Shown one piece after another: positions 48,267 to 57,736 of a stretch of DNA of 64,000 nt (within the stretch, counting starts at the first letter, position 1; each line of letters opens with the position of its first letter). Under the pieces are notes generated by a model, which saw nothing but the letters and a program-made list of their open reading frames with translations, was not told the origin of the DNA and searched no databases. The stretch is taken from NCBI RefSeq assembly GCF_000772955.1, contig NZ_JPVO01000043.1, positions 1 through 64,000 of the forward strand. The letters run 5' to 3'. The translations under genes were made by a program, and so were the position numbers. The DNA comes from Ureibacillus sinduriensis BLB-1 = JCM 15800 (GTDB taxonomy: Bacteria > Bacillota > Bacilli > Bacillales_A > Planococcaceae).

Positions 48267-48269
48267 TTC

Positions 48270-48303
48270 AATGGGTTGGTCTTAAAGAGGCCAACCCATT
48301 TTG
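48270..48303 (+). terminator. hflKC terminator
   Basis: AATGGGTTGG / CCAACCCATT with an 11-base loop is followed by TTGC; the T-run is short. Confidence 0.75.
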
Positions 48304-48846
48304 CATATGTGGAAGTGAATTGAATGGTCAACGATAGATTTAACTATTGCTAGGAGCATACTTCATACTTCAGTTTCAGTGCAAGTCGCAAGTAACCATT
48401 TTTTCAATACCATGACTCATTCCATAGTATAGGTTTCCCTAAACCAGTGGGACGACTAAACGATGAAAACAAATTCCACCCTCCTCCTCAGGTAAAATGA
48501 ATATGTGGGACCCTGGGAAGCACCGGCAATGAACTTGCAAGCATCTTCCAGTGGCAATCTCCCAATAAACTCACTCCTTTTAAAACTTTTCAAGCAACCA
48601 TTTCAAATTTTAGAAATTGCACGCATATTATATAGGGTTCGACAAAATTGTGGACCATTTTATCAGAAGTGCGATGATTATACTCTCTTTATATGCATGA
48701 AGCATAGAATTCCTTTGTTCAATAGCCAACTGGAAACATTGGATTGCTGCACGGGCTCATTCAATTCAAAAGTGTGATGAATATTACGGATGATTCATAA
48801 AAGTGTAACCGATTACAAAATTTGTGAAGAAACGGAGAGGGACTGT
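48304..48846. other. Long leader/spacer before the AtuA cluster, with a decayed minus-strand frame
   Basis: No intact gene is convincing. On the minus strand, about 48735-48450, one frame reads as protein-like sequence interrupted by several stops (blocks NGPQFCRTLYNMRAISKI and IGRLPLEDACKFIAGASQ). This looks like the remains of a gene of unknown family. No strong promoter for the downstream cluster could be identified, and no regulator gene lies beside it. Confidence 0.4.
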
Positions 48847-50202
48847 TTGCAAAATGGCGTAAAGATACTATCTCCTTGTGGCATTCTTGGGTATGGATTT
48901 CCCAAACAACCATTTCTTGATGCCTTTAAAGAAAAAATTCATGGCATTGTAGTCGATGCAGGGTCTACCGATGCTGGTCCACATAAATTGGGGGCAAATG
49001 TTTCAATCGTAAGCCGCCGTGCCCTGAAAAAAGATTTGTCCATCATTCTTGAGAAAGGATTATCACATCGCATTCCTGTCATTATTGGTTCTGCTGGAGG
49101 GGCAGGAGCGAGGGCACATGTTGAATTGACTCTTGAGGTTGTAAAAGAACTTTTGGTTGAACAAAATATCCATGCTAAGATAGGCATCATTTGGGCGGAT
49201 TTTAAACAACGGACCATCATTGATGCGCTGCGGGAAGGTCGCATTACACCATTAAGCTCCAATATTCCAGACCTTACGATTGAAAAGATTTTGGATACCG
49301 GAACAATTGTGGCGCAGATGGGGCACGAACCAATCCTTAAAGCATTGAAACAGCAATGCGACATTATTTTATGTGGAAGAAGTTACGATCCTTCACCTTT
49401 TGCGGCATTAGGCATTTATCATGGGATGGATCCGGGGCTATCGTATCATTTAGGGAAAATATTGGAATGCGGTGCTTTGTGTGCTGAGCCTGGAACGACA
49501 AAGGACGGCATAATCGGCACCCTTTATCATGACTCTTTTACTGTTCAAGCTTTGAACCCAATCCGTAAATGTACGCCAACGAGTGTCGCTGCACATACTT
49601 TTTACGAAAAAGAGCATCCATATATTTTGCATGGGCCAGGTTTTACATTAAATCTGGAAAACTGCGAATTTAATGAAAAAGCAAATGGGATAGTCGAAGT
49701 TCGCAACAGTCAATATACACAAGATAAAGAGGTGCGAATTAAGCTGGAGGGCGCCCGGAAAGTTGCGTATCGTACATTTGTTGTTGCCGGGATACGGGAT
49801 CCGCTGTTGATCAATCAACTGGAAGAGGTTGAAAAAGAGGTTGTCGGGCAGGTCAGTAATTATTTTGCCGAAATATCTGAAGATGATTACAAAATAAACT
49901 TTTATCATTACGGGAAGGATGCAGTGCTGGGCAATCATGAGCCATCGACTTTTAGTGGACATGAAATCGGCGTTATGTTTGAAGTATTGGCGAAAAATCA
50001 GGAATTGGCCAATGCTGTTTGTGCCAATGTCAGATCTACCTTTCTGCATTTTGGATATGAGGGAAGGAAATCGACTGCAGGTAATTTGGCTTTCCCATTT
50101 GCTCCAAGTGATATTGAATTTGGCCCGGTGTATGAATTTTCTATTTACCATTTAATGCGAATTACACAAGATCCATTTCTTTTGGAAATAGTGGAGGTGT
50201 AA
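48847..50202 (+). CDS. AtuA-family protein (DUF1446-type)
   Basis: Member of the family named for acyclic terpene utilisation; no reaction has been firmly assigned to it. The 451 residues contain the blocks KILSPCGILGYGFP, VVDAGSTDAGPHKLG, IGSAGGAGARAH, ILCGRSYDPSPF, ILECGALCAEPG and CTPTSVAAHTFYE, diagnostic for this branch. The TTG at 48847 is chosen because GGAGAGGG stands five bases upstream and the protein then begins MQNGVKILSP, as relatives do; an ATG 19 codons earlier has no ribosome site. It opens the seven-gene cluster, three bases from the DUF4387 gene that typically accompanies it. Confidence 0.82.
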   Translation: MQNGVKILSPCGILGYGFPKQPFLDAFKEKIHGIVVDAGSTDAGPHKLGANVSIVSRRALKKDLSIILEKGLSHRIPVIIGSAGGAGARAHVELTLEVVKELLVEQNIHAKIGIIWADFKQRTIIDALREGRITPLSSNIPDLTIEKILDTGTIVAQMGHEPILKALKQQCDIILCGRSYDPSPFAALGIYHGMDPGLSYHLGKILECGALCAEPGTTKDGIIGTLYHDSFTVQALNPIRKCTPTSVAAHTFYEKEHPYILHGPGFTLNLENCEFNEKANGIVEVRNSQYTQDKEVRIKLEGARKVAYRTFVVAGIRDPLLINQLEEVEKEVVGQVSNYFAEISEDDYKINFYHYGKDAVLGNHEPSTFSGHEIGVMFEVLAKNQELANAVCANVRSTFLHFGYEGRKSTAGNLAFPFAPSDIEFGPVYEFSIYHLMRITQDPFLLEIVEV

Positions 50203-50205
50203 AGT

Positions 50206-50514
50206 ATGGTCAAATTAGTTGAGGTTGCAAAGATTTTACGCAGTAAAAATGCAGGTCCGTTCGAAATAACGTTGGATGTGTTGTTTGATGATAAAGAAAT
50301 CTACGACCAAATAAAGAATGGGGGGGTTATTACAAAAGAGAAAGTGGCAAAAATTTATCATTTGAGTATTGAGGATATACACCATCTCGTTTATTTCGAT
50401 CAGGCGCTTGGCATAAAAATAACCATGGCCAGAAAAATCTCATCCGGCAGCCCGGGGGATCGGGATGTCTATGGTGCCCAACAGCATGTCCCATTAATGA
50501 ATCTTGAACTTTAA
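50206..50514 (+). CDS. DUF4387-family protein
   Basis: Small protein of unknown function that often neighbours AtuA-family genes, suggesting that the two form one enzyme. The 102 residues show the conserved N-terminal LRSKNAGPFEITLDVLF and the C-terminal SGSPGDRDVYGAQQHVPL. There is no signal peptide or membrane segment. GGAGGTG overlaps the end of the preceding gene, and the start is three bases past its stop, so translation is probably coupled. Confidence 0.85.
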   Translation: MVKLVEVAKILRSKNAGPFEITLDVLFDDKEIYDQIKNGGVITKEKVAKIYHLSIEDIHHLVYFDQALGIKITMARKISSGSPGDRDVYGAQQHVPLMNLEL

Positions 50515-50544
50515 CATAGAAAGCCTTTTAGAAGGGAGTGGGGG

Positions 50545-51447
50545 ATGAAAAAGGTGAACCGCATTAAGCGTATACGAAAAGACTGGCTATTGTATGTAAT
50601 GTTATTGCCCGGAATGCTCTATTTTGCAATATTCCACATTGTTCCCATCATCAATATGAAACTGGCATTCCAAGATTATAGAATCATTGGCGAAAACGTG
50701 TGGGTTGGGTGGAAGCATTTTGAACAGCTATTCAGCTCCCCGGCGTTTAAAGATGTTTTAATGAACACCGTAATCATCAGCTCGATGAAGATTATTTTTA
50801 TTTTTCCAATCCCCATTCTTTTCTCGCTTTTAGTAAACGAATTGCGTTTTGGTCCTTTCCGGAAATATGTACAATCGGTTTCTTATTTACCCCATTTCCT
50901 ATCATGGGTGGTCATAGCGGGAATTTGGATTACGTTGCTTGATCCCGTTGATGGGGGAGCCAATGTGATTCGGAATTTTTTTCAATTGCCTTCCCTTGAC
51001 TATATGACGAGCAAAGAACATATTCGTTGGGTGCTTGTGTACTCCGAGATGTGGAGAAGTGCAGGGTGGGATTCTATCTTATATTTGGCGGCTATTTTAA
51101 AGATTAGTCCTTCTCTTTATGAAGCAGCCCGAATAGATGGGGCATCCACCCTTCACCAAATGAGGTATATCACCCTCCCGTCGCTTATGAGTACGGTGGT
51201 CACGTTGTTTATTTTAAACTTGGGATTCTTTATGAGTGCGGGATTCGACCAAGTGTTTAACTTAATGAATGATTCCGTGTTAAGCGTCATTGATATTTTA
51301 GATACGTATGTTTATAGAATCGGTATCTTGAATGGTCAATATTCTTATGCGACGGCAGCAAGCTTGTTCAAAGGCGCCATTGGGTTGATATTGATATTAG
51401 GCACCCATTTTCTGTCAAAACGCTTAACGGGAAAAGGCGTATGGTAG
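50545..51447 (+). CDS. Carbohydrate-type (CUT1) ABC permease, LplB-like
   Basis: First membrane subunit of an importer for a sugar, oligosaccharide or related compound. The 300 residues have six predicted membrane segments, the N-terminal LLYVMLLPGMLYFAIFHIVP block and the EAA loop EAARIDGASTLHQMRYITLP (about 192-211) that docks the ATPase. The closest general type is LplB/YtcP of B. subtilis. GGGAGTGGGGG precedes the ATG. No ATPase gene is present in the cluster. Confidence 0.9.
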   Translation: MKKVNRIKRIRKDWLLYVMLLPGMLYFAIFHIVPIINMKLAFQDYRIIGENVWVGWKHFEQLFSSPAFKDVLMNTVIISSMKIIFIFPIPILFSLLVNELRFGPFRKYVQSVSYLPHFLSWVVIAGIWITLLDPVDGGANVIRNFFQLPSLDYMTSKEHIRWVLVYSEMWRSAGWDSILYLAAILKISPSLYEAARIDGASTLHQMRYITLPSLMSTVVTLFILNLGFFMSAGFDQVFNLMNDSVLSVIDILDTYVYRIGILNGQYSYATAASLFKGAIGLILILGTHFLSKRLTGKGVW

Positions 51448-51460
51448 AGGAGGAGTTAAG

Positions 51461-52339
51461 ATGAAGCAATTCAGCATGACAAAGGCGATTATTCAATTTA
51501 TTTTATTTCTATTTACATTGGCTGTCTTGATTCCTTTATTAAATATCCTTGCGCTTTCGTTATCTGAGCCCTCGAGAGTCGATGAATTATCAGGACTTGG
51601 GGTTATCCCGAAAGGATTTTCACTTATTAACTTTGAAATTATCATGTCCAATCCGTTCATAGTAAGAAGCATTGTGAATTCGGTTTTCATAACCATTGTG
51701 GGTACTTGTTTAAACCTGTTTTTAACCGCCATTACCGCTTATGTATTAGCGAGAACGGAATTTGTAGGGAAACGGCTTGTGCTGGTTGTCTTGATTGCCG
51801 TAATGGTATTTGAACCTTCCATGATCACCGAATATTTATTAATGAAAGATTTGCATTTATTGAATTCATATGCTGCCGTCATTTTATACAAGGCAATTAA
51901 TGTTTATTATTTATTCATCCTGATGCGTTTCTTCCAAGAGGTGCCAAACAGTATATTGGAAGCGGCCAAAATAGATGGTGCAGGGCATTTCCGAATTTTC
52001 ACGACCATTGTGCTGCCTTTGTCTAAGCCGGCCCTTGCTACTTTAGCGTTATTCTATGGCGTCTATCATTGGAATGAGTACTTCAGGGCAACCATCTATT
52101 TAACAGATCCGAATAAATGGCCGTTTCAAGTGGTGTTGCGACAATTTGTTGTAACGCAAGACAACACCACATTGCTAAAAGGAGTGGAAGGGATGACACC
52201 GGAACTGCTGGCTAGTCTGGATTTTGGTTCCCTGCAGTCTGCAACGATAGTGGTGGCCGTTATTCCTATGTTATTGCTTTATCCATTAATACTGAAGTAT
52301 TTTACGAAAGGGACTATGGATGGTGGAGTGAAGGAATAA
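51461..52339 (+). CDS. Carbohydrate-type (CUT1) ABC permease, YtcP-like
   Basis: Second membrane subunit, pairing with the one 13 bases upstream. The 292 residues have six membrane segments and the EAA loop EAAKIDGAGHFRIFTTIVLP (about 167-186). The N terminus FTLAVLIPLLNILALSLSEP and the C-terminal region (LLLYPLILKYFTKGTMDGGVKE) are typical of the YtcP/MalG branch. AGAGGAGG precedes the ATG. Confidence 0.9.
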   Translation: MKQFSMTKAIIQFILFLFTLAVLIPLLNILALSLSEPSRVDELSGLGVIPKGFSLINFEIIMSNPFIVRSIVNSVFITIVGTCLNLFLTAITAYVLARTEFVGKRLVLVVLIAVMVFEPSMITEYLLMKDLHLLNSYAAVILYKAINVYYLFILMRFFQEVPNSILEAAKIDGAGHFRIFTTIVLPLSKPALATLALFYGVYHWNEYFRATIYLTDPNKWPFQVVLRQFVVTQDNTTLLKGVEGMTPELLASLDFGSLQSATIVVAVIPMLLLYPLILKYFTKGTMDGGVKE

Positions 52340-52408
52340 GCGGGATTACCATCTCCGCGGGTACCGCCTGGAAATGAGGGACTACAAATATATTTTGGGG
52401 GTTACGGA

Positions 52409-53872
52409 ATGAAGAAACTGTTATGGATGTTGTTTGGGCTGCTTGCGATTTTCTTGGTGGCATGTAGTGACAAAGGGGATGAGGAAGCTGTTGCACCAGA
52501 GCCGTCAGAGGATGGAAAAACAGCCATTACAATTGCTTATAAAGATGATGGACCTTCAAGTGAGGATTCTGTGAAATATTATGATGCTCTTGAAGCCGCA
52601 TTAAAGGAACATCGGGATTTGGATGTGGAATTTAACATTGTCGAAATTGCCCAAGGCGATTATGCGGAAAAGTTAAATCTGCTTCTCTATAGCGGGGAAA
52701 TTCCTGACATCATTTACTTCCAAGGAAGTGACGAACAAATTGCAGCGCAAGGATTGTTGGAAGATCTAACGCCATATATCGAAGGCTCCGAATATTTGAA
52801 AGATATTTTGTATGATCACAATGGTACAAGGTTGGATAATTATCCATATTTATTGTGGGTAAAACCAATCAATCATAAAGTACCCGTTGTGCGAACGGAC
52901 TATTTGGAACAGCTATCTTCATCCGAAACTTTGCTAGCCGATCCGACTATTGAAAACTACCGGGCTTTCTTTCAAGAATTGGTCGATAAAGGATTGACCG
53001 AATATGGAATAACTGTCGCAGGTGATATAGCGGAGCTTGATTTCATTTTTAACCGCGCATTTGGTGTTACATCAACTTGGTTGGAAGATGGAAATGGAGG
53101 CTATGTATATAAAAAAGTATCAAATGCCGAAAAGGAAAAACTCGCATTTTATGCAGAGCTTTATGCTGGTGGGTTACTGGATAATCAGTATCTAACAAAA
53201 CAATGGGACGTAAAAGAAGATGATTTCTATAACAACAAAGCGGGAGTCATTGTCGGTACAAATGGAAAAGTAATCGACTTATACAATACCCGCATAAAGG
53301 CAGTGAATGGAGAGAGTGCGGAGCTGACTGTATTGCCGGGGGCATCTGGCATCTCATCCGGCTATGCGGCAACGAGCGTTACAAAGGAGCCGAGAGGACT
53401 TGCAATTTCATCCCAGTCGCCAAACAAAAACATTGCATTTGAAATCTTGGATTTTTTGGCTAGTCCTGAAGGGATGAAGCTGGATTTATTGGGGTACGAA
53501 GGCGAGCACTACAATATCGAGAATGGCGAAATCGTGTTGACAGATAAATATTATTCTGAATGGTTTTCTCGATTCTGGGAACCGCAAACAATAAAGCTCG
53601 ATACGGCCATCAGTGAGAGGACGCCTCTATTAAGCCCTCCAGGTCAAGCATCTACAAATGCGGTAATCGAGTCTTACGAGGCCGATAACGACTTCACCAT
53701 ACCCGAGGAAAATATAAGCCAATGGGATGCTATGGAAAACTTATATAAGGAATATGCTGCGGATATTATTACGGGCAAGGTGTCCATCGATGCCTTTGAT
53801 ACATTTGTAGACGAATGGTACGGGGCAGGTGGGGAGGACATTACAAAATTGGCGAATGAAAAGTTAAAATAA
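52409..53872 (+). CDS. Extracellular solute-binding lipoprotein (CUT1 family 1)
   Basis: Receptor of the importer, anchored outside the membrane. The 487 residues begin with a lipoprotein signal (lipobox LVAC, lipidated Cys19), an acidic linker, then the large two-lobed fold of family 1 binding proteins (LNLLLYSGEIPDIIYFQGSDEQ; NNKAGVIVGTNG; PRGLAISSQSPNKNIAFEILDFLAS). It is of the LplA type, whose members bind oligosaccharides and other bulky solutes. TGGGGG precedes the ATG; the 69-base gap before it holds a short GC-rich palindrome. Substrate unknown. Confidence 0.9.
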   Translation: MKKLLWMLFGLLAIFLVACSDKGDEEAVAPEPSEDGKTAITIAYKDDGPSSEDSVKYYDALEAALKEHRDLDVEFNIVEIAQGDYAEKLNLLLYSGEIPDIIYFQGSDEQIAAQGLLEDLTPYIEGSEYLKDILYDHNGTRLDNYPYLLWVKPINHKVPVVRTDYLEQLSSSETLLADPTIENYRAFFQELVDKGLTEYGITVAGDIAELDFIFNRAFGVTSTWLEDGNGGYVYKKVSNAEKEKLAFYAELYAGGLLDNQYLTKQWDVKEDDFYNNKAGVIVGTNGKVIDLYNTRIKAVNGESAELTVLPGASGISSGYAATSVTKEPRGLAISSQSPNKNIAFEILDFLASPEGMKLDLLGYEGEHYNIENGEIVLTDKYYSEWFSRFWEPQTIKLDTAISERTPLLSPPGQASTNAVIESYEADNDFTIPEENISQWDAMENLYKEYAADIITGKVSIDAFDTFVDEWYGAGGEDITKLANEKLK

Positions 53873-53885
53873 AGGACTGTTCAAA

Positions 53886-55040
53886 ATGACAACATTTGAG
53901 GATCGTGTGAAAGGCGTTCTAATTTCAGCAGCACTGGGCGATGCGCTCGGTGCTCCTGTTGAAAAATTGTCAAGGGAAGAAATAGAACAAAAATATGGCT
54001 ATGTCACCACATTAAAAACAAGGTGGTATAAAGAAGCATCAGGGGAAGAGGTGACACTTGGCAAACGGAGAGGCAACGGGATTATTACTGATGATACTTT
54101 GATGATTCTTGCGCTATGTCGTGTATATAAGAAGGAAAAACGTCATTTGGATGCCTATGATTTAGCCAATGAGTTTACGAAAGAAATAGCTTTCCGCAAA
54201 ACGTTTATTCCTGAATTTGACCGTGAGACCTTTATATTGGATCGATTATTTTACCCAGAAAAACATATTTTCCTGCGCCATGTGCTGGCAAACTGTGAGC
54301 CGCGTGAAGGCGGGATGGGGAATATGGTGAACTGTGGTGCAGCGATGTATATTGCCCCAATTGGAATCGTAAACGCAGGAAATCCACTTGCTGCATATAA
54401 TGAAGCAATAGCTTTTGCTTCGGGGCACCAAGTAAGCTACGGTCTTGAAGCGGCTGGAGTATTGGCAGCTTGTGTGGCATGTGCGTTCTCACCGGATGCA
54501 GCAGTGGAAGATGTTGTTGAAACCGCAATTGCTTTGGCTAAGGATGGCACTAAACAAGCAATAATAGCGCTTACAAAAAAAGCGGGGGAGTTAAAGAAAA
54601 TCCATAGCTCATACAAGGAAGTGGTGGCGATCTTGCATGAGTGCATTGCACCTTTTTCGCCAATGGGGGACGATGTGCACCGCAAAATTGAGAAGGTTGG
54701 TATTCCTTCAAACCATTATACACCAAGCCGATTGTTCTCTATCGAGGAGTTGCCCCTTGCATTGGCCTTCATCGTCTATAACGATGGGGGATATTACAAA
54801 TCTATTTTGGATGGCATAAATTCCGGAAGAGATACAGACTCGATTGGTGTTATGGTGGGCGCAATCCTGGGAGCGATGTATGGCACAAAGTTTATTGAAG
54901 AAGAAGATGTCCATTTGCTCTCCAAGACAAACCGATTGGATTTTGATGCAGAAGCCGCCTCTTTCGCGGAAGCAGCAAAAGAGATACTTGAAAGAGACTT
55001 GCAAATTGCACGTAAACAGGAAGGAATTATTGGGCATTAA
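53886..55040 (+). CDS. ADP-ribosylglycohydrolase-family enzyme (DraG fold), copy 1
   Basis: Dinuclear-metal hydrolase of the ARH/DraG superfamily, whose known members cleave N- or O-glycosidic bonds to ribose. The 384 residues contain the N-terminal SAALGDALGAPVE, the metal site ITDDT (Thr68-Thr71), and the C-terminal GRDTDSIGVMVGAILGA with Asp316 and Asp318, so activity is expected. There is no signal peptide, so it acts on a substrate after uptake. It lies 13 bases after the binding-protein gene. Relatives such as YegU occur with nucleoside transport genes, so the substrate may be a glycoside rather than an ADP-ribosylated protein. Confidence 0.87.
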   Translation: MTTFEDRVKGVLISAALGDALGAPVEKLSREEIEQKYGYVTTLKTRWYKEASGEEVTLGKRRGNGIITDDTLMILALCRVYKKEKRHLDAYDLANEFTKEIAFRKTFIPEFDRETFILDRLFYPEKHIFLRHVLANCEPREGGMGNMVNCGAAMYIAPIGIVNAGNPLAAYNEAIAFASGHQVSYGLEAAGVLAACVACAFSPDAAVEDVVETAIALAKDGTKQAIIALTKKAGELKKIHSSYKEVVAILHECIAPFSPMGDDVHRKIEKVGIPSNHYTPSRLFSIEELPLALAFIVYNDGGYYKSILDGINSGRDTDSIGVMVGAILGAMYGTKFIEEEDVHLLSKTNRLDFDAEAASFAEAAKEILERDLQIARKQEGIIGH

Positions 55041-55054
55041 TGGGGGGCCATAAG

Positions 55055-57151
55055 ATGATCCCAAAAAACTATCTAGAAAAAGTATATGCGAGTATTTTGG
55101 CGATGAACGCCGGAATACGATTAGGTGCGCCTGTTGAACCACCTGAATGGACTTCGGAAATGATTCAAGATGTTTTCGGGGAAATCAAAGATTATGTGAA
55201 GGTGTATGATGTTTTTTCTGCAGATGATGATGCAAACGGCCCGATATTTTTTATAAGGGCTTTGCTGGATCATGCAAGGAACCGGCAATTAGAACCGCAG
55301 GATGTTGCGAAAACTTGGCTGAACTATTTGCGCGAAGGGTTAGGCATGGTTTGGTGGGGGGGCGACCAAATCAGCACTGAGCATACGGTATATCTAAATT
55401 TGAAAAAAGGAATTCAGGCACCACGTTCTGGATCAATCGAACTGAATGGTGAGATTCTGGCAGAACAAATTGGCGGTCAAATTTTTATTGATTCCTTTGG
55501 TTTGATTTTTCCGAATAATCCCGTCAAGGCAGCACAATACGCCGAAATTGCGGCGAGTGTCTCCCACGATCGGAACGGGATATATGGGGCGCGTTTTATA
55601 GCTGCATGCATCGCTTTGGCATTCACAAAGGAGACAGTACTTGAAATACTTTTGGAAGCTCTAGAACAGATTCCTGCAGAAAGTACTTATGCCAAGGTAG
55701 TTCGAGCGGTTATAGATTTTCATAAGTTGCATCCTGATGATTTCCGTGCTTGCCGCGATTTTTTGGAAGACGAGTGGGGATACGATAAATTTACTGGAGT
55801 TTGCCATATCATCCCCAATGCGGGTGTATGCATCCTCGCCCTTTTATACGGCGAAGGGAATGTAAGCCGGACAATTGAAATTGCAACGATGTGTGGTTGG
55901 GATACGGATTGTAATGCAGGGACTGTTGGATCGATTGTTGGAGCCTTGAGTGGGCTCGATGGAATTGCTTCCAACTATCGAAAGCCTATCAATGACGCCA
56001 TCGTTGCATCTAGTGTCTCGGGTTATTTAAATAACGTGGATTTGCCTACATTTGCAAAACAGATTGCTCTATTGGGCTATCGGGAAGCAAGGGAAGAACC
56101 GCCACCCCGATTAGTCGAAAGCTATAAAGAGAAGGAAATCTATTTTGATTTTACATTGCCAGGGTCAACACATGGATTTTGCACGAGTTATCCGTTTAAA
56201 ACATTTTTGCGAAATTCCGGTAATAAAGGGTTTTCCACAAACGGTTCCTTGGAAATTATCGTATTTAGGATGTATGAAGGGGATATTTCGACAGTTTTTT
56301 ATAGAACTTTTTACAGGCGAAATCTTTTCATGGATGAAAAATATTCACCAACCTTTGCCCCCACCGCCTATAGTGGGCAAACGGTTTCCATGAAAGTGAA
56401 GGTGGAGCGGTTGCATGGTAAAGCCATCGTTTTGACGCCATACGTGCGTACTACATCCGATAAAAAAATAATCAAGACGAAGGATCCTATAATAGTCAAT
56501 TCGATCTGGCAAACGATTGAATTCACAGTACCAAATACAAAAGGAGATTTAATAGAAGAAGTGGGTCTGATGATTCACTCGGACTCTTCTAGAACAGAGA
56601 GGGCGTTTGGTAAAATCTTTTTGGATGAGTTTCGAATTTATGGTAAGCCGTCCTACGAAATTGATTTTAAAAAACAAGTTGTCGAGTTCAAGTGCGTGAC
56701 ACCGTTTTCTCATCATCGGGGAAAATGGACGCTCGAAGAGGATGCAATGAAAATGGAAAGCAATGAAGGTGCATTTTGTTTCACGGGACATTATTTTATG
56801 GAAGATGCGATTATTGAAGCCAATATTAAACCTATAAAAGGAAATTCACATGGTATTCTCTTTAGATCGTCTGGAATAGAGCAATATTATTTTGCAGGGT
56901 TTGACTCTGAAAATAAAGTGATACTCGGTTCACGGGATTTTGGGGCAACTTTATTGGCTGAAGCCGACTACAGGTGGAAGCATGGCGAGTTGTACCGCTT
57001 AAAATTGAAAGCAATGGATAATAATTTATCTTTTTATATAAATGATGAACTTTTGTTGACTGTACAAGATGATACCTTCCAACATGGTATGTGGGGTTTT
57101 TATGCTTTTGAAGGTGGGGAATGCACCTACACGGACATAAAAATAAATTAG
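55055..57151 (+). CDS. ADP-ribosylglycohydrolase-family enzyme fused to two beta-sandwich modules
   Basis: Large second DraG-fold enzyme of the cluster, 698 residues. Residues 1-330 are the hydrolase: the usual GDALG motif is changed to NAGIRLGAPVE, but the metal residues Asp57-59 (SADDDAN) and Asp283/Asp285 (CGWDTDCNAGT) are kept. From about 350 to 535 a beta-rich module resembles carbohydrate-binding CBM4/9-type domains, and about 540-698 resembles a concanavalin/LamG or DUF1080-like domain (GHYFMEDAIIEANIKP; GILFRSSG). There is no signal peptide. The ATG at 55055 follows GGGGGG; one at 55040 overlaps the previous stop. Domain names in the second half are inferred from pattern only. Confidence 0.8.
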   Translation: MIPKNYLEKVYASILAMNAGIRLGAPVEPPEWTSEMIQDVFGEIKDYVKVYDVFSADDDANGPIFFIRALLDHARNRQLEPQDVAKTWLNYLREGLGMVWWGGDQISTEHTVYLNLKKGIQAPRSGSIELNGEILAEQIGGQIFIDSFGLIFPNNPVKAAQYAEIAASVSHDRNGIYGARFIAACIALAFTKETVLEILLEALEQIPAESTYAKVVRAVIDFHKLHPDDFRACRDFLEDEWGYDKFTGVCHIIPNAGVCILALLYGEGNVSRTIEIATMCGWDTDCNAGTVGSIVGALSGLDGIASNYRKPINDAIVASSVSGYLNNVDLPTFAKQIALLGYREAREEPPPRLVESYKEKEIYFDFTLPGSTHGFCTSYPFKTFLRNSGNKGFSTNGSLEIIVFRMYEGDISTVFYRTFYRRNLFMDEKYSPTFAPTAYSGQTVSMKVKVERLHGKAIVLTPYVRTTSDKKIIKTKDPIIVNSIWQTIEFTVPNTKGDLIEEVGLMIHSDSSRTERAFGKIFLDEFRIYGKPSYEIDFKKQVVEFKCVTPFSHHRGKWTLEEDAMKMESNEGAFCFTGHYFMEDAIIEANIKPIKGNSHGILFRSSGIEQYYFAGFDSENKVILGSRDFGATLLAEADYRWKHGELYRLKLKAMDNNLSFYINDELLLTVQDDTFQHGMWGFYAFEGGECTYTDIKIN

Positions 57152-57157
57152 ATCACT

Positions 57158-57192
57158 AGGTATAACCAATTTGCTTAAGGTTATACCTTTTT
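57158..57192 (+). terminator. Terminator of the AtuA-ABC-glycohydrolase cluster
   Basis: AGGTATAACC / GGTTATACCT around an 11-base loop is followed by five T. Confidence 0.88.
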
Positions 57193-57310: not shown

Positions 57311-57736
57311 TTGTTCAAAGTAAATCAACTGATTCAAAATATACTTCTGGCATTCATCATGTCTTGTTCTATTACTTCGATATTTAAGGCAACACCTTAT
57401 ACATGGTTAAAAGCTGAAGTCATACATATACCACTATTGTTTATTGTCATGTTCGGTCTATCCCTTCTCGTTGTCGAGGATGTAAGAAATAGTTTTAAAA
57501 AAGTGCTGAAATTTGAATCAAGAAAAGATAAACGGCCAATCTGGCAAGTAGGTGTGGGGATGATTTTTTATTTCACGCAGGTAGGGCTAATCGAAGTATT
57601 TGCCCGAAGCCTAATGGTATACAATTTAGGGGGAATGCCGCTTTATTTGGTATTTGCCTTTATGAATGCATTTTTGCTTACTGTTATTTATGAAGAAATC
57701 TTCTACCCAAAAATTTCAAAAAAATCTTACTCCTGA
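57311..57736 (+). CDS. Small membrane protein of unknown function
   Basis: I do not recognise the family. The 141 residues contain four hydrophobic stretches: about 8-24, 38-56 (IPLLFIVMFGLSLLVVE), 80-100 and 108-128 (GMPLYLVFAFMNAFLLTV), with a basic loop between the second and third (KKVLKFESRKDKRP). The start is TTG at 57311 with GAGGAATGGAAG upstream, and the plausible ribosome site plus membrane pattern favour a real gene. It stands alone between the cluster terminator and polA. Confidence 0.65.
   Translation: MFKVNQLIQNILLAFIMSCSITSIFKATPYTWLKAEVIHIPLLFIVMFGLSLLVVEDVRNSFKKVLKFESRKDKRPIWQVGVGMIFYFTQVGLIEVFARSLMVYNLGGMPLYLVFAFMNAFLLTVIYEEIFYPKISKKSYS

What the first reader, a model, noticed from the sequence alone, without database searches (positions are those of the whole stretch)
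48847..57192. Undescribed uptake-and-degradation cluster: AtuA + DUF4387 + CUT1 importer + two ADP-ribosylglycohydrolases
Seven genes in one direction, with gaps of 3-69 bases and a single terminator, sit between hflKC and polA, where B. subtilis has none of them. AtuA and DUF4387 are families without a firm reaction, the importer is of the carbohydrate type, and both glycohydrolases lack signal peptides. The simplest reading is a pathway that imports a bulky glycoside, cleaves its glycosidic (perhaps ribosyl) bond inside the cell with the DraG-fold enzymes, and processes the aglycone or acid with AtuA/DUF4387. The substrate is not deducible from sequence.
Basis: partly seen in the sequence, partly recalled or inferred. 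Interest (0 to 1): 0.8.

Follow-up and report, generated by a model that had tools for sequence, protein, structure and literature searches.

The report
Predicted ribosyl-citramalate uptake and breakdown operon
Seven neighbouring bacterial genes, found in recognisable form in many related bacteria, look like a system that imports an unknown sugar-acid compound, cuts off its ribose-like sugar and splits the remaining acid, which points to a nutrient that my literature searches did not find described.

Summary
In detail: seven same-strand genes (48847/48790-57151), small gaps, one terminator. The cluster is conserved: of the 80 best genome loci encoding a GH2 relative (Bacilli and Clostridia), 77 have matches to both permeases, 78 to the binding protein, 75 at least two DraG-fold frames, 69 AtuA+DUF4387, 62 a ribokinase-like kinase. 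AtuA/DUF4387 are not without a reaction: they match solved structures deposited as citramalate lyase subunits A and B (E 3.5e-127, 1.7e-27), and in 45 of 80 DUF4387-bearing Bacillota genomes searched, methylaspartate ammonia-lyase lies within 10 kb. In 6 loci the pair is replaced by CoA-transferase + CitE-type lyase (2) or CitDEF (4), two systems of the same reaction class that share a CitE-type subunit; none of the 69 AtuA loci has them. With cluster ribokinases and a CBM66-like module on GH2, the best reading is import of a ribofuranoside of citramalate (or a close relative such as citrate), cytoplasmic cleavage by DraG-fold glycosidases, sugar phosphorylation, and cleavage of the acid to pyruvate + acetate. 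The substrate is inferred, not shown. Citrate versus citramalate, and ribose versus another furanose, remain open.

The parts
48790..50202 (+). AtuA family protein, CmlA-like subunit of a citramalate-type lyase (likely start TTG 48847)
   Evidence: Pfam PF07287 69 bits; PDB 9erq_A citramalate lyase subunit A, E 3.5e-127
50206..50514 (+). DUF4387, CmlB-like subunit
   Evidence: Pfam PF14330 132 bits; PDB 9erq_B citramalate lyase subunit B, E 1.7e-27; only DUF4387 match in this genome
50545..51447 (+). CUT1-type ABC permease 1
   Evidence: PF00528; best NCBIfam relatives GlcT and UgpA, below cut-off
51461..52339 (+). CUT1-type ABC permease 2
   Evidence: PF00528; best NCBIfam relatives GlcU, UgpE, MalG, below cut-off
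52409..53872 (+). Solute-binding lipoprotein (lipobox read by eye)
   Evidence: PF13416/PF01547; distant similarity to solved family-1 binding proteins, among them AlgQ1/AlgQ2
53886..55040 (+). GH1: single-domain ADP-ribosylglycohydrolase-fold protein; no signal peptide seen by eye
   Evidence: PF03747 141 bits; TDDT and DTDS motifs align with MJ1187 and DraG; AF2 model pLDDT 82.8, best match MJ1187 (TM to target 0.71, rmsd 6.3), also DraG and ARH3
55040..57151 (+). GH2: ADP-ribosylglycohydrolase domain (about 10-350), beta-rich region and CBM66-like C-terminal module (start may be ATG 55055)
   Evidence: PF03747 172 bits; AF2 model pLDDT 92.8; Foldseek MJ1187/ARH3, and B. subtilis CBM66 with TM to target 0.79-0.82; D62, D63, D64, D288, D290 invariant in 46 rows
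57158..57192 (+). Rho-independent terminator
   Evidence: 10-pair stem, 11-base loop, T-run, -12.6 kcal/mol
48267..48789 (.). Gap between hflC and AtuA; upstream of AtuA the four fetched congeners carry a divergent UgpC-like ATPase and three of them a ribokinase; no such gene or detectable remnant here
   Evidence: Congener maps L047-L050; tblastn of the congeners' kinase and ATPase finds nothing in this stretch

Best explanation
The operon imports and degrades a ribofuranoside of citramalate, or of a very similar 3-hydroxy acid. The lipoprotein and two permeases, powered by a UgpC/MsmX-type ATPase encoded elsewhere in this genome, bring in the intact compound. The two DraG-fold enzymes hydrolyse the sugar-acid bond in the cytoplasm, GH2 with help from a CBM66-like module. 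The freed ribose is phosphorylated by a ribokinase, encoded in the cluster in most relatives and by another gene here. AtuA/DUF4387 (CmlAB type, presumably without CoA or carrier protein) splits the freed citramalate into pyruvate and acetate. Shown here: gene content, conservation, homology to deposited citramalate lyase, and replacement of AtuA/DUF4387 in some relatives by other lyase systems of the same reaction class. Inferred: the substrate, the glycosidic bond and its anomer, location of the enzymes, CoA-independence, and the order of steps.
For: (1) AtuA and DUF4387 match PDB 9erq/9evf chains A and B, deposited as citramalate lyase cmlA/cmlB. (2) In 45 of 80 searched DUF4387-bearing Bacillota genomes, methylaspartate ammonia-lyase lies within 10 kb, same strand in all 45; that pathway produces citramalate (PMC4682846, passages). 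(3) Of 80 GH2 loci, 69 have AtuA+DUF4387, 2 CaiB-type CoA-transferase + CitE-type lyase, 4 CitF with CitD and CitE, 5 none. In L139 citD, citE, citF, ligase, citX and citG pass NCBIfam cut-offs; in L149 citF passes. The alternatives never occur with AtuA (6 of 9 longer loci without it against 0 of 69; Fisher 3e-7, relatedness ignored). (4) On a quick GH2 tree the CoA-transferase/CitE pair is one nested clade and CitDEF needs at least 2 origins. (5) Ribokinase-like match in 62 of 80 loci; 8 of 12 cluster kinases scored pass the TIGR02152 ribokinase cut-off. (6) GH2's C-terminal module resembles CBM66, founded on the levan-binding module of B. subtilis levanase (PMC6560043, passages). (7) In 250 genomes of the order, 11 of 12 with DUF4387 also have GH2.
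Against: No such compound was found in print (13 papers hold 'citramal' and 'ribofuranos'; titles and starts of abstracts seen only). The two replacing systems share a CitE-type subunit (28-29% identity), so they are not two independent witnesses, and the L054 CoA-transferase and CitE pass no equivalog cut-off. The CitF proteins of the CitDEF loci do not group with methylaspartate-linked CitF, and L139 CitE just passes the citrate lyase cut-off (445 of 443 bits), so citrate is not excluded. 18 of 80 loci lack a kinase match of 100 bits; 4 of 12 kinases fall below the TIGR02152 cut-off and none of the 12 reaches the second ribokinase model NF008353 (341 bits). This locus has neither kinase nor ATPase. 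In the phylum the DraG cluster is a minority setting of DUF4387: 3 of 80 genomes have a strong GH2 match. DraG relatives are known for ADP-ribose bonds. The citramalate lyase name rests on the deposition; I saw no paper on it. L108, L129 and L144 have no lyase in the stretch, though the genomes of L108 and L144 carry DUF4387 and/or citF elsewhere.
Confidence: 0.47

Rival explanations
1. Same pathway logic, but the acid is citrate (or malate) rather than citramalate: a ribosylated citrate-type compound is imported, hydrolysed, and the acid cleaved to an oxoacid plus acetate.
For: CitD, CitE, CitF and the ligase of L139 pass citrate lyase equivalog cut-offs; CitF proteins of the CitDEF loci lie apart from methylaspartate-linked CitF; solved relatives of the L054 CitE include malyl-CoA lyase and human CLYBL.
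Against: The commonest lyase, in 69 of 80 loci, is the one whose solved homologue is deposited as citramalate lyase.
Confidence: 0.2
2. The furanose is not ribose but another sugar such as fructofuranose; the kinase and the DraG fold have shifted specificity.
For: The best module-level match of the GH2 C-terminal domain is CBM66 of B. subtilis levanase, a levan binder; 4 of 12 cluster kinases fall below the TIGR02152 cut-off and none reaches NF008353.
Against: 8 of 12 cluster kinases pass TIGR02152; L059 combines two GH2-like genes with CUT1-type permeases, a ribonucleoside-hydrolase homologue and a kinase that passes TIGR02152 (its second PfkB-type kinase scores only 38.9); staphylococci carry an ADP-ribosylglycohydrolase-permease-ribokinase trio (PMC3637587, passages).
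Confidence: 0.17
3. Two neighbouring but functionally unlinked modules: a riboside importer/glycosidase set, and a lyase that handles citramalate from another source.
For: Among searched DUF4387 genomes of the phylum the gene lies far more often beside methylaspartate ammonia-lyase (45 of 80) than in a genome with a strong GH2 match (3 of 80).
Against: Linkage kept in 69 of 80 GH2 loci across Bacilli and Clostridia, with another lyase system in 6 more; in the genome of L108 AtuA+DUF4387 sit elsewhere but again beside a DraG-like gene; G310 and G275 show further DraG-like neighbours of DUF4387 or citF.
Confidence: 0.1
4. Salvage or detoxification of ADP-ribosylated molecules, as the Pfam name of GH1/GH2 suggests.
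For: Fold and metal motifs are those of ADP-ribosylglycohydrolases.
Against: For GH1 the DraG and Tri1 equivalog models are far below cut-off and GH2 matches neither; it does not explain lyase or importer. ADP-ribosyltransferases were not searched for.
Confidence: 0.03

Closest known systems
CmlAB citramalate lyase (PDB 9erq, 9evf)
   Same: AtuA + DUF4387 as two subunits; 428 and 99 bits over nearly the whole chains
   Different: Here in a DraG/CUT1 operon; this genome has no methylaspartate ammonia-lyase match at E 1e-80. Specificity of this copy untested.
ADP-ribosylglycohydrolase-permease-ribokinase trio of a staphylococcal element (PMC3637587, passages seen)
   Same: Glycohydrolase, transporter and ribokinase encoded together
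   Different: Cytosine/purine-type permease instead of a CUT1 ABC importer; one glycohydrolase; no lyase among the three genes named.
ADP-ribosylglycohydrolases (MJ1187, DraG, ARH3)
   Same: Fold and metal motifs
   Different: Catabolic-looking operon; GH2 carries a CBM66-like module; DraG equivalog cut-off not met.
rbs ribose utilisation (recalled)
   Same: Ribokinase in relatives
   Different: CUT1 importer, glycosidases and lyase; this genome has a separate ribokinase-like gene 58% identical to a congener's cluster kinase on contig C1.
CitDEF citrate/citramalate lyase
   Same: Reaction class; stands in for AtuA/DUF4387 in 4 of 80 loci
   Different: Different protein families, includes an acyl carrier protein; no citF match at E 1e-50 in this genome.

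Membership tests
CmlAB citramalate lyase | Near full-length homology of both subunits to the solved enzyme | tested here: met
CmlAB citramalate lyase | Subunit genes adjacent | tested here: met
   3-base gap
CmlAB citramalate lyase | Context of a citramalate-producing (methylaspartate) pathway | tested here: not met
   seen for DUF4387 in 45 of 80 other genomes, but no methylaspartate ammonia-lyase match at E 1e-80 in this genome
CmlAB citramalate lyase | Cleaves citramalate | not testable with these tools
   enzyme assay needed; no paper on the solved enzyme seen
ADP-ribosylglycohydrolase (DraG) superfamily | PF03747 above cut-off, fold and metal-binding acidic motifs | tested here: met
DraG / Tri1 protein-ADP-ribosyl hydrolase proper | Equivalog cut-off | tested here: not met
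   GH1: TIGR02662 54.8 of 337 bits, NF041672 29.3 of 490; GH2: no NCBIfam match
CUT1 sugar ABC importer | Two permeases and a family-1 binding protein | tested here: met
CUT1 sugar ABC importer | Own ATPase in the operon | tested here: not met
   absent here; UgpC-like ATPase upstream of AtuA in the four fetched congeners; nearest in this genome 64% identical, contig C42
CBM66 | Fold of the B. subtilis module | tested here: met
   TM to target 0.79-0.82, rmsd 2.1-2.2; galactocerebrosidase and CBM22 chains also match GH2 at low TM
CBM66 | Ligand-binding residues and ligand | not tested
   residues not compared
Ribokinase step in the cluster | Kinase above ribokinase cut-off | tested here: inconclusive
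   8 of 12 relatives' cluster kinases pass TIGR02152, 0 of 12 pass NF008353; none in this locus

The most novel reading that the evidence does not exclude
An undescribed but environmentally common class of natural compounds, O-ribofuranosides of citramalate or a near relative, feeds many Bacillota through a dedicated pathway in which DraG-fold enzymes act as catabolic ribofuranosidases, and in which the acid-cleaving step has been exchanged several times between AtuA/DUF4387 and CitE-based lyase systems.
Probability: 0.38. Interest if true: 0.78.

Novelty: new variant of a known kind. Interest (0 to 1): 0.62.

Why it matters
It gives AtuA/DUF4387 a second genomic setting beside the methylaspartate pathway, recasts some ADP-ribosylglycohydrolases as likely nutrient glycosidases, and predicts the chemical class of an unknown nutrient for Bacillus, Paenibacillus and Clostridium relatives. 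The in-place exchange of one lyase for another turns a 'substrate not deducible' cluster into a short list of compounds that can be tested with purified proteins.

Tried and rejected
Rejected: 'AtuA/DUF4387 have no known reaction' (PDB deposit). Not found: ribokinase/ATPase remnant upstream of AtuA (tblastn). Tested and not supported: that the CitF proteins of the CitDEF loci belong with methylaspartate-linked CitF (its L174 row has a long, unsure branch). Corrected on re-reading: I first called the replacing systems 'three unrelated lyases'; the two replacing AtuA/DUF4387 share a CitE-type subunit, so I lowered two odds slightly (0.50 to 0.47, 0.40 to 0.38). Relation of AtuA to CitE was not tested beyond BLAST labelling.

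Literature, listings only unless said: no held paper contains DUF4387 or citramalate with AtuA; 7 hold DUF1446, one read in passages; 5 since 2020 hold 'citramalate lyase', none on this enzyme by title; 4 hold ADP-ribosylglycohydrolase and citrate lyase, none on such an operon by title; 4 hold ADP-ribosylglycohydrolase and ribokinase, one read in passages; 9. One search was too broad to inform. Ligand residues of the CBM66-like module and of CmlA were not compared.

The methylaspartate test used 80 of the 92 DUF4387 genomes other than the window's own, because the tool takes 80 handles. Kinase count: one search also scored two kinases of L059, left out of the 12 (one passes at 339 bits, one scores 38.9). 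One search counts the window's own row as AtuA, hence 70 there. It is a quick tree with long rows (L148 among them), so its star values are less sure.
Full report
What is there. The window holds seven same-strand genes between hflKC and polA: AtuA, DUF4387, two permeases, a binding lipoprotein and two ADP-ribosylglycohydrolase-family proteins, here GH1 and GH2. Pfam names all seven above cut-off. Gaps run from 3 to 69 bases (GH1/GH2 overlap by one base, or lie 14 apart if GH2 starts at ATG 55055), with a terminator after GH2.

Conservation. In 250 genomes of the order, GH2 is found in 14 and DUF4387 in 12, with 11 in common. Of the three GH2 genomes without DUF4387, two (G598, G619) carry a CoA-transferase/CitE pair instead and one (G597) has only distant GH2 relatives (32-33%). 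The one DUF4387 genome without GH2 (G559) has a distant AtuA (31%) near two ABC ATPase matches. Five of the 24 genomes of the genus have GH2; the four congeners fetched hold the cluster beside polA. A scan of the named genome collection kept 80 loci from Ureibacillus, Bacillus, Paenibacillus, Cohnella, Clostridium and others. Over these 80: matches to both permeases 77, binding protein 78, AtuA with DUF4387 69; at least two DraG-fold frames 75 (four in 9), ribokinase-like match of 100 bits or more somewhere in the held stretch 62, LacI- or GntR-like regulator 67.

The lyase. AtuA and DUF4387 match the two chains of PDB 9erq/9evf, deposited as citramalate lyase cmlA and cmlB; I saw no paper on that structure, and CoA-independence is my inference from the two-subunit make-up. 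Across Bacillota, DUF4387 occurs in 93 of 398 sampled genomes. Of 80 of these searched, 53 have methylaspartate ammonia-lyase over cut-off and 45 have it within 10 kb of DUF4387, same strand in all 45; only 9 have any GH2-profile match at E 1e-10, three of them strong. A 2015 paper on the methylaspartate pathway in E. coli O157:H7 noted an unknown DUF1446 gene downstream of the ammonia-lyase gene, and found the fate of citramalate unclear (PMC4682846, passages seen). That DUF1446 is the older name of AtuA is recalled.

The replacement. In two Sporosarcina loci (L080, L083) the AtuA/DUF4387 slot holds a CaiB-type CoA-transferase and a CitE-type lyase. In L054 (the same locus as L080) neither passes an equivalog cut-off; solved relatives include succinate-hydroxymethylglutarate CoA-transferase, malyl-CoA lyase and human CLYBL. 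In L139, citD, citE, citF, the ligase and citXG follow the glycosidases and pass curated cut-offs, citE narrowly; L147, L149 and L151 have CitE, CitF and CitD matches, of which L149 citF passes and L147 CitE does not. The two replacing systems share a CitE-type subunit, so they are partly one witness. They are absent from all 69 AtuA loci and present in 6 of 9 longer loci without AtuA (Fisher 3e-7, not corrected for relatedness). On a quick GH2 tree the CoA-transferase pair is one nested clade and CitDEF needs at least two origins. Of the five loci with no lyase, L082 and L110 are short contigs; the genome of L108 has AtuA+DUF4387 beside a DraG-like gene, and a citF, elsewhere; the genome of L144 has three citF genes, one in the clade of L147/L149/L151; L129's genome gave neither DUF4387 nor citF. 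A further genome, G275, carries citF and CitE matches beside four DraG-like stretches and a permease match. Exchange of AtuA/DUF4387 for CitE-based systems in one slot suggests that the acid released in this pathway is citramalate or citrate.

Against this. The CitF proteins of the CitDEF loci do not join the methylaspartate-linked CitF proteins, so citrate remains open. 18 of 80 loci lack a ribokinase-like match of 100 bits; of 12 cluster kinases scored, 8 pass TIGR02152 and none passes NF008353.

The glycosidases. GH1 and GH2 have the ADP-ribosylglycohydrolase fold (models pLDDT 82.8 and 92.8; best solved match for both MJ1187, with DraG and ARH3 also listed; the GH1 superposition is loose, rmsd 6.3) and keep the acidic metal motifs, but GH1 is far below the DraG and Tri1 equivalog scores and GH2 matches neither. 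GH2's C-terminal module matches B. subtilis CBM66, a levan-binding module (PMC6560043, passages). A related locus (L059) combines two GH2-like genes with CUT1-type permeases, a ribonucleoside-hydrolase homologue and a ribokinase.

This locus compared with its neighbours. Upstream of AtuA the four fetched congeners carry a divergent UgpC-like ATPase, and three of them a ribokinase (the ATPase of L050 passes the UgpC subfamily cut-off). Here both are gone without detectable trace. This genome has other candidates: a ribokinase-like gene 58% identical to the congener's and UgpC-like ATPases up to 64% identical.

Conclusion. The best reading is a ribofuranoside-of-citramalate utilisation operon; the substrate is inferred, not shown.

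Noticed in passing
window 48267-48789: Upstream of AtuA congeners carry a divergent UgpC-like ATPase (L047-L050) and a ribokinase (L047, L049, L050); both absent here, no remnant detected. In L047 and L050 the ATPase lies next to hflC; in L048 and L049 other genes follow it.
   Followed up: partly
window 57311-57736: Small conserved frame (141 aa, no Pfam or NCBIfam match) between the cluster and polA, kept in the four fetched congeners at 83-91% identity.
   Followed up: no
   Followed up: partly
L174 (G275): citF and CitE matches beside four DraG-like stretches and a CUT1-type permease match: a further lyase/DraG pairing outside the 80 loci.
   Followed up: partly
L136 and L137 (Clostridium): A 255-aa frame sits between GH2 and a second DraG-like gene; in L136 it has weak, below-cut-off matches to esterase-type models, hinting that some substrates carry an ester.
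   Followed up: partly
L177 (G381): AtuA/DUF4387 and CitE/CitF matches within 8 kb of each other, with a GntR-like match and no DraG match in the 14 kb: both lyase types together.
   Followed up: no
L095-L100, L141 (Bacilli): Two extra DraG-like genes stand upstream of AtuA (in L095 right after the binding-protein gene), giving four DraG-fold frames in one cluster.
   Followed up: no
L158 (G559): A distant AtuA/DUF4387 pair (31% and 42%) lies near two ABC ATPase matches: a different AtuA setting in the same family of bacteria.
   Followed up: no
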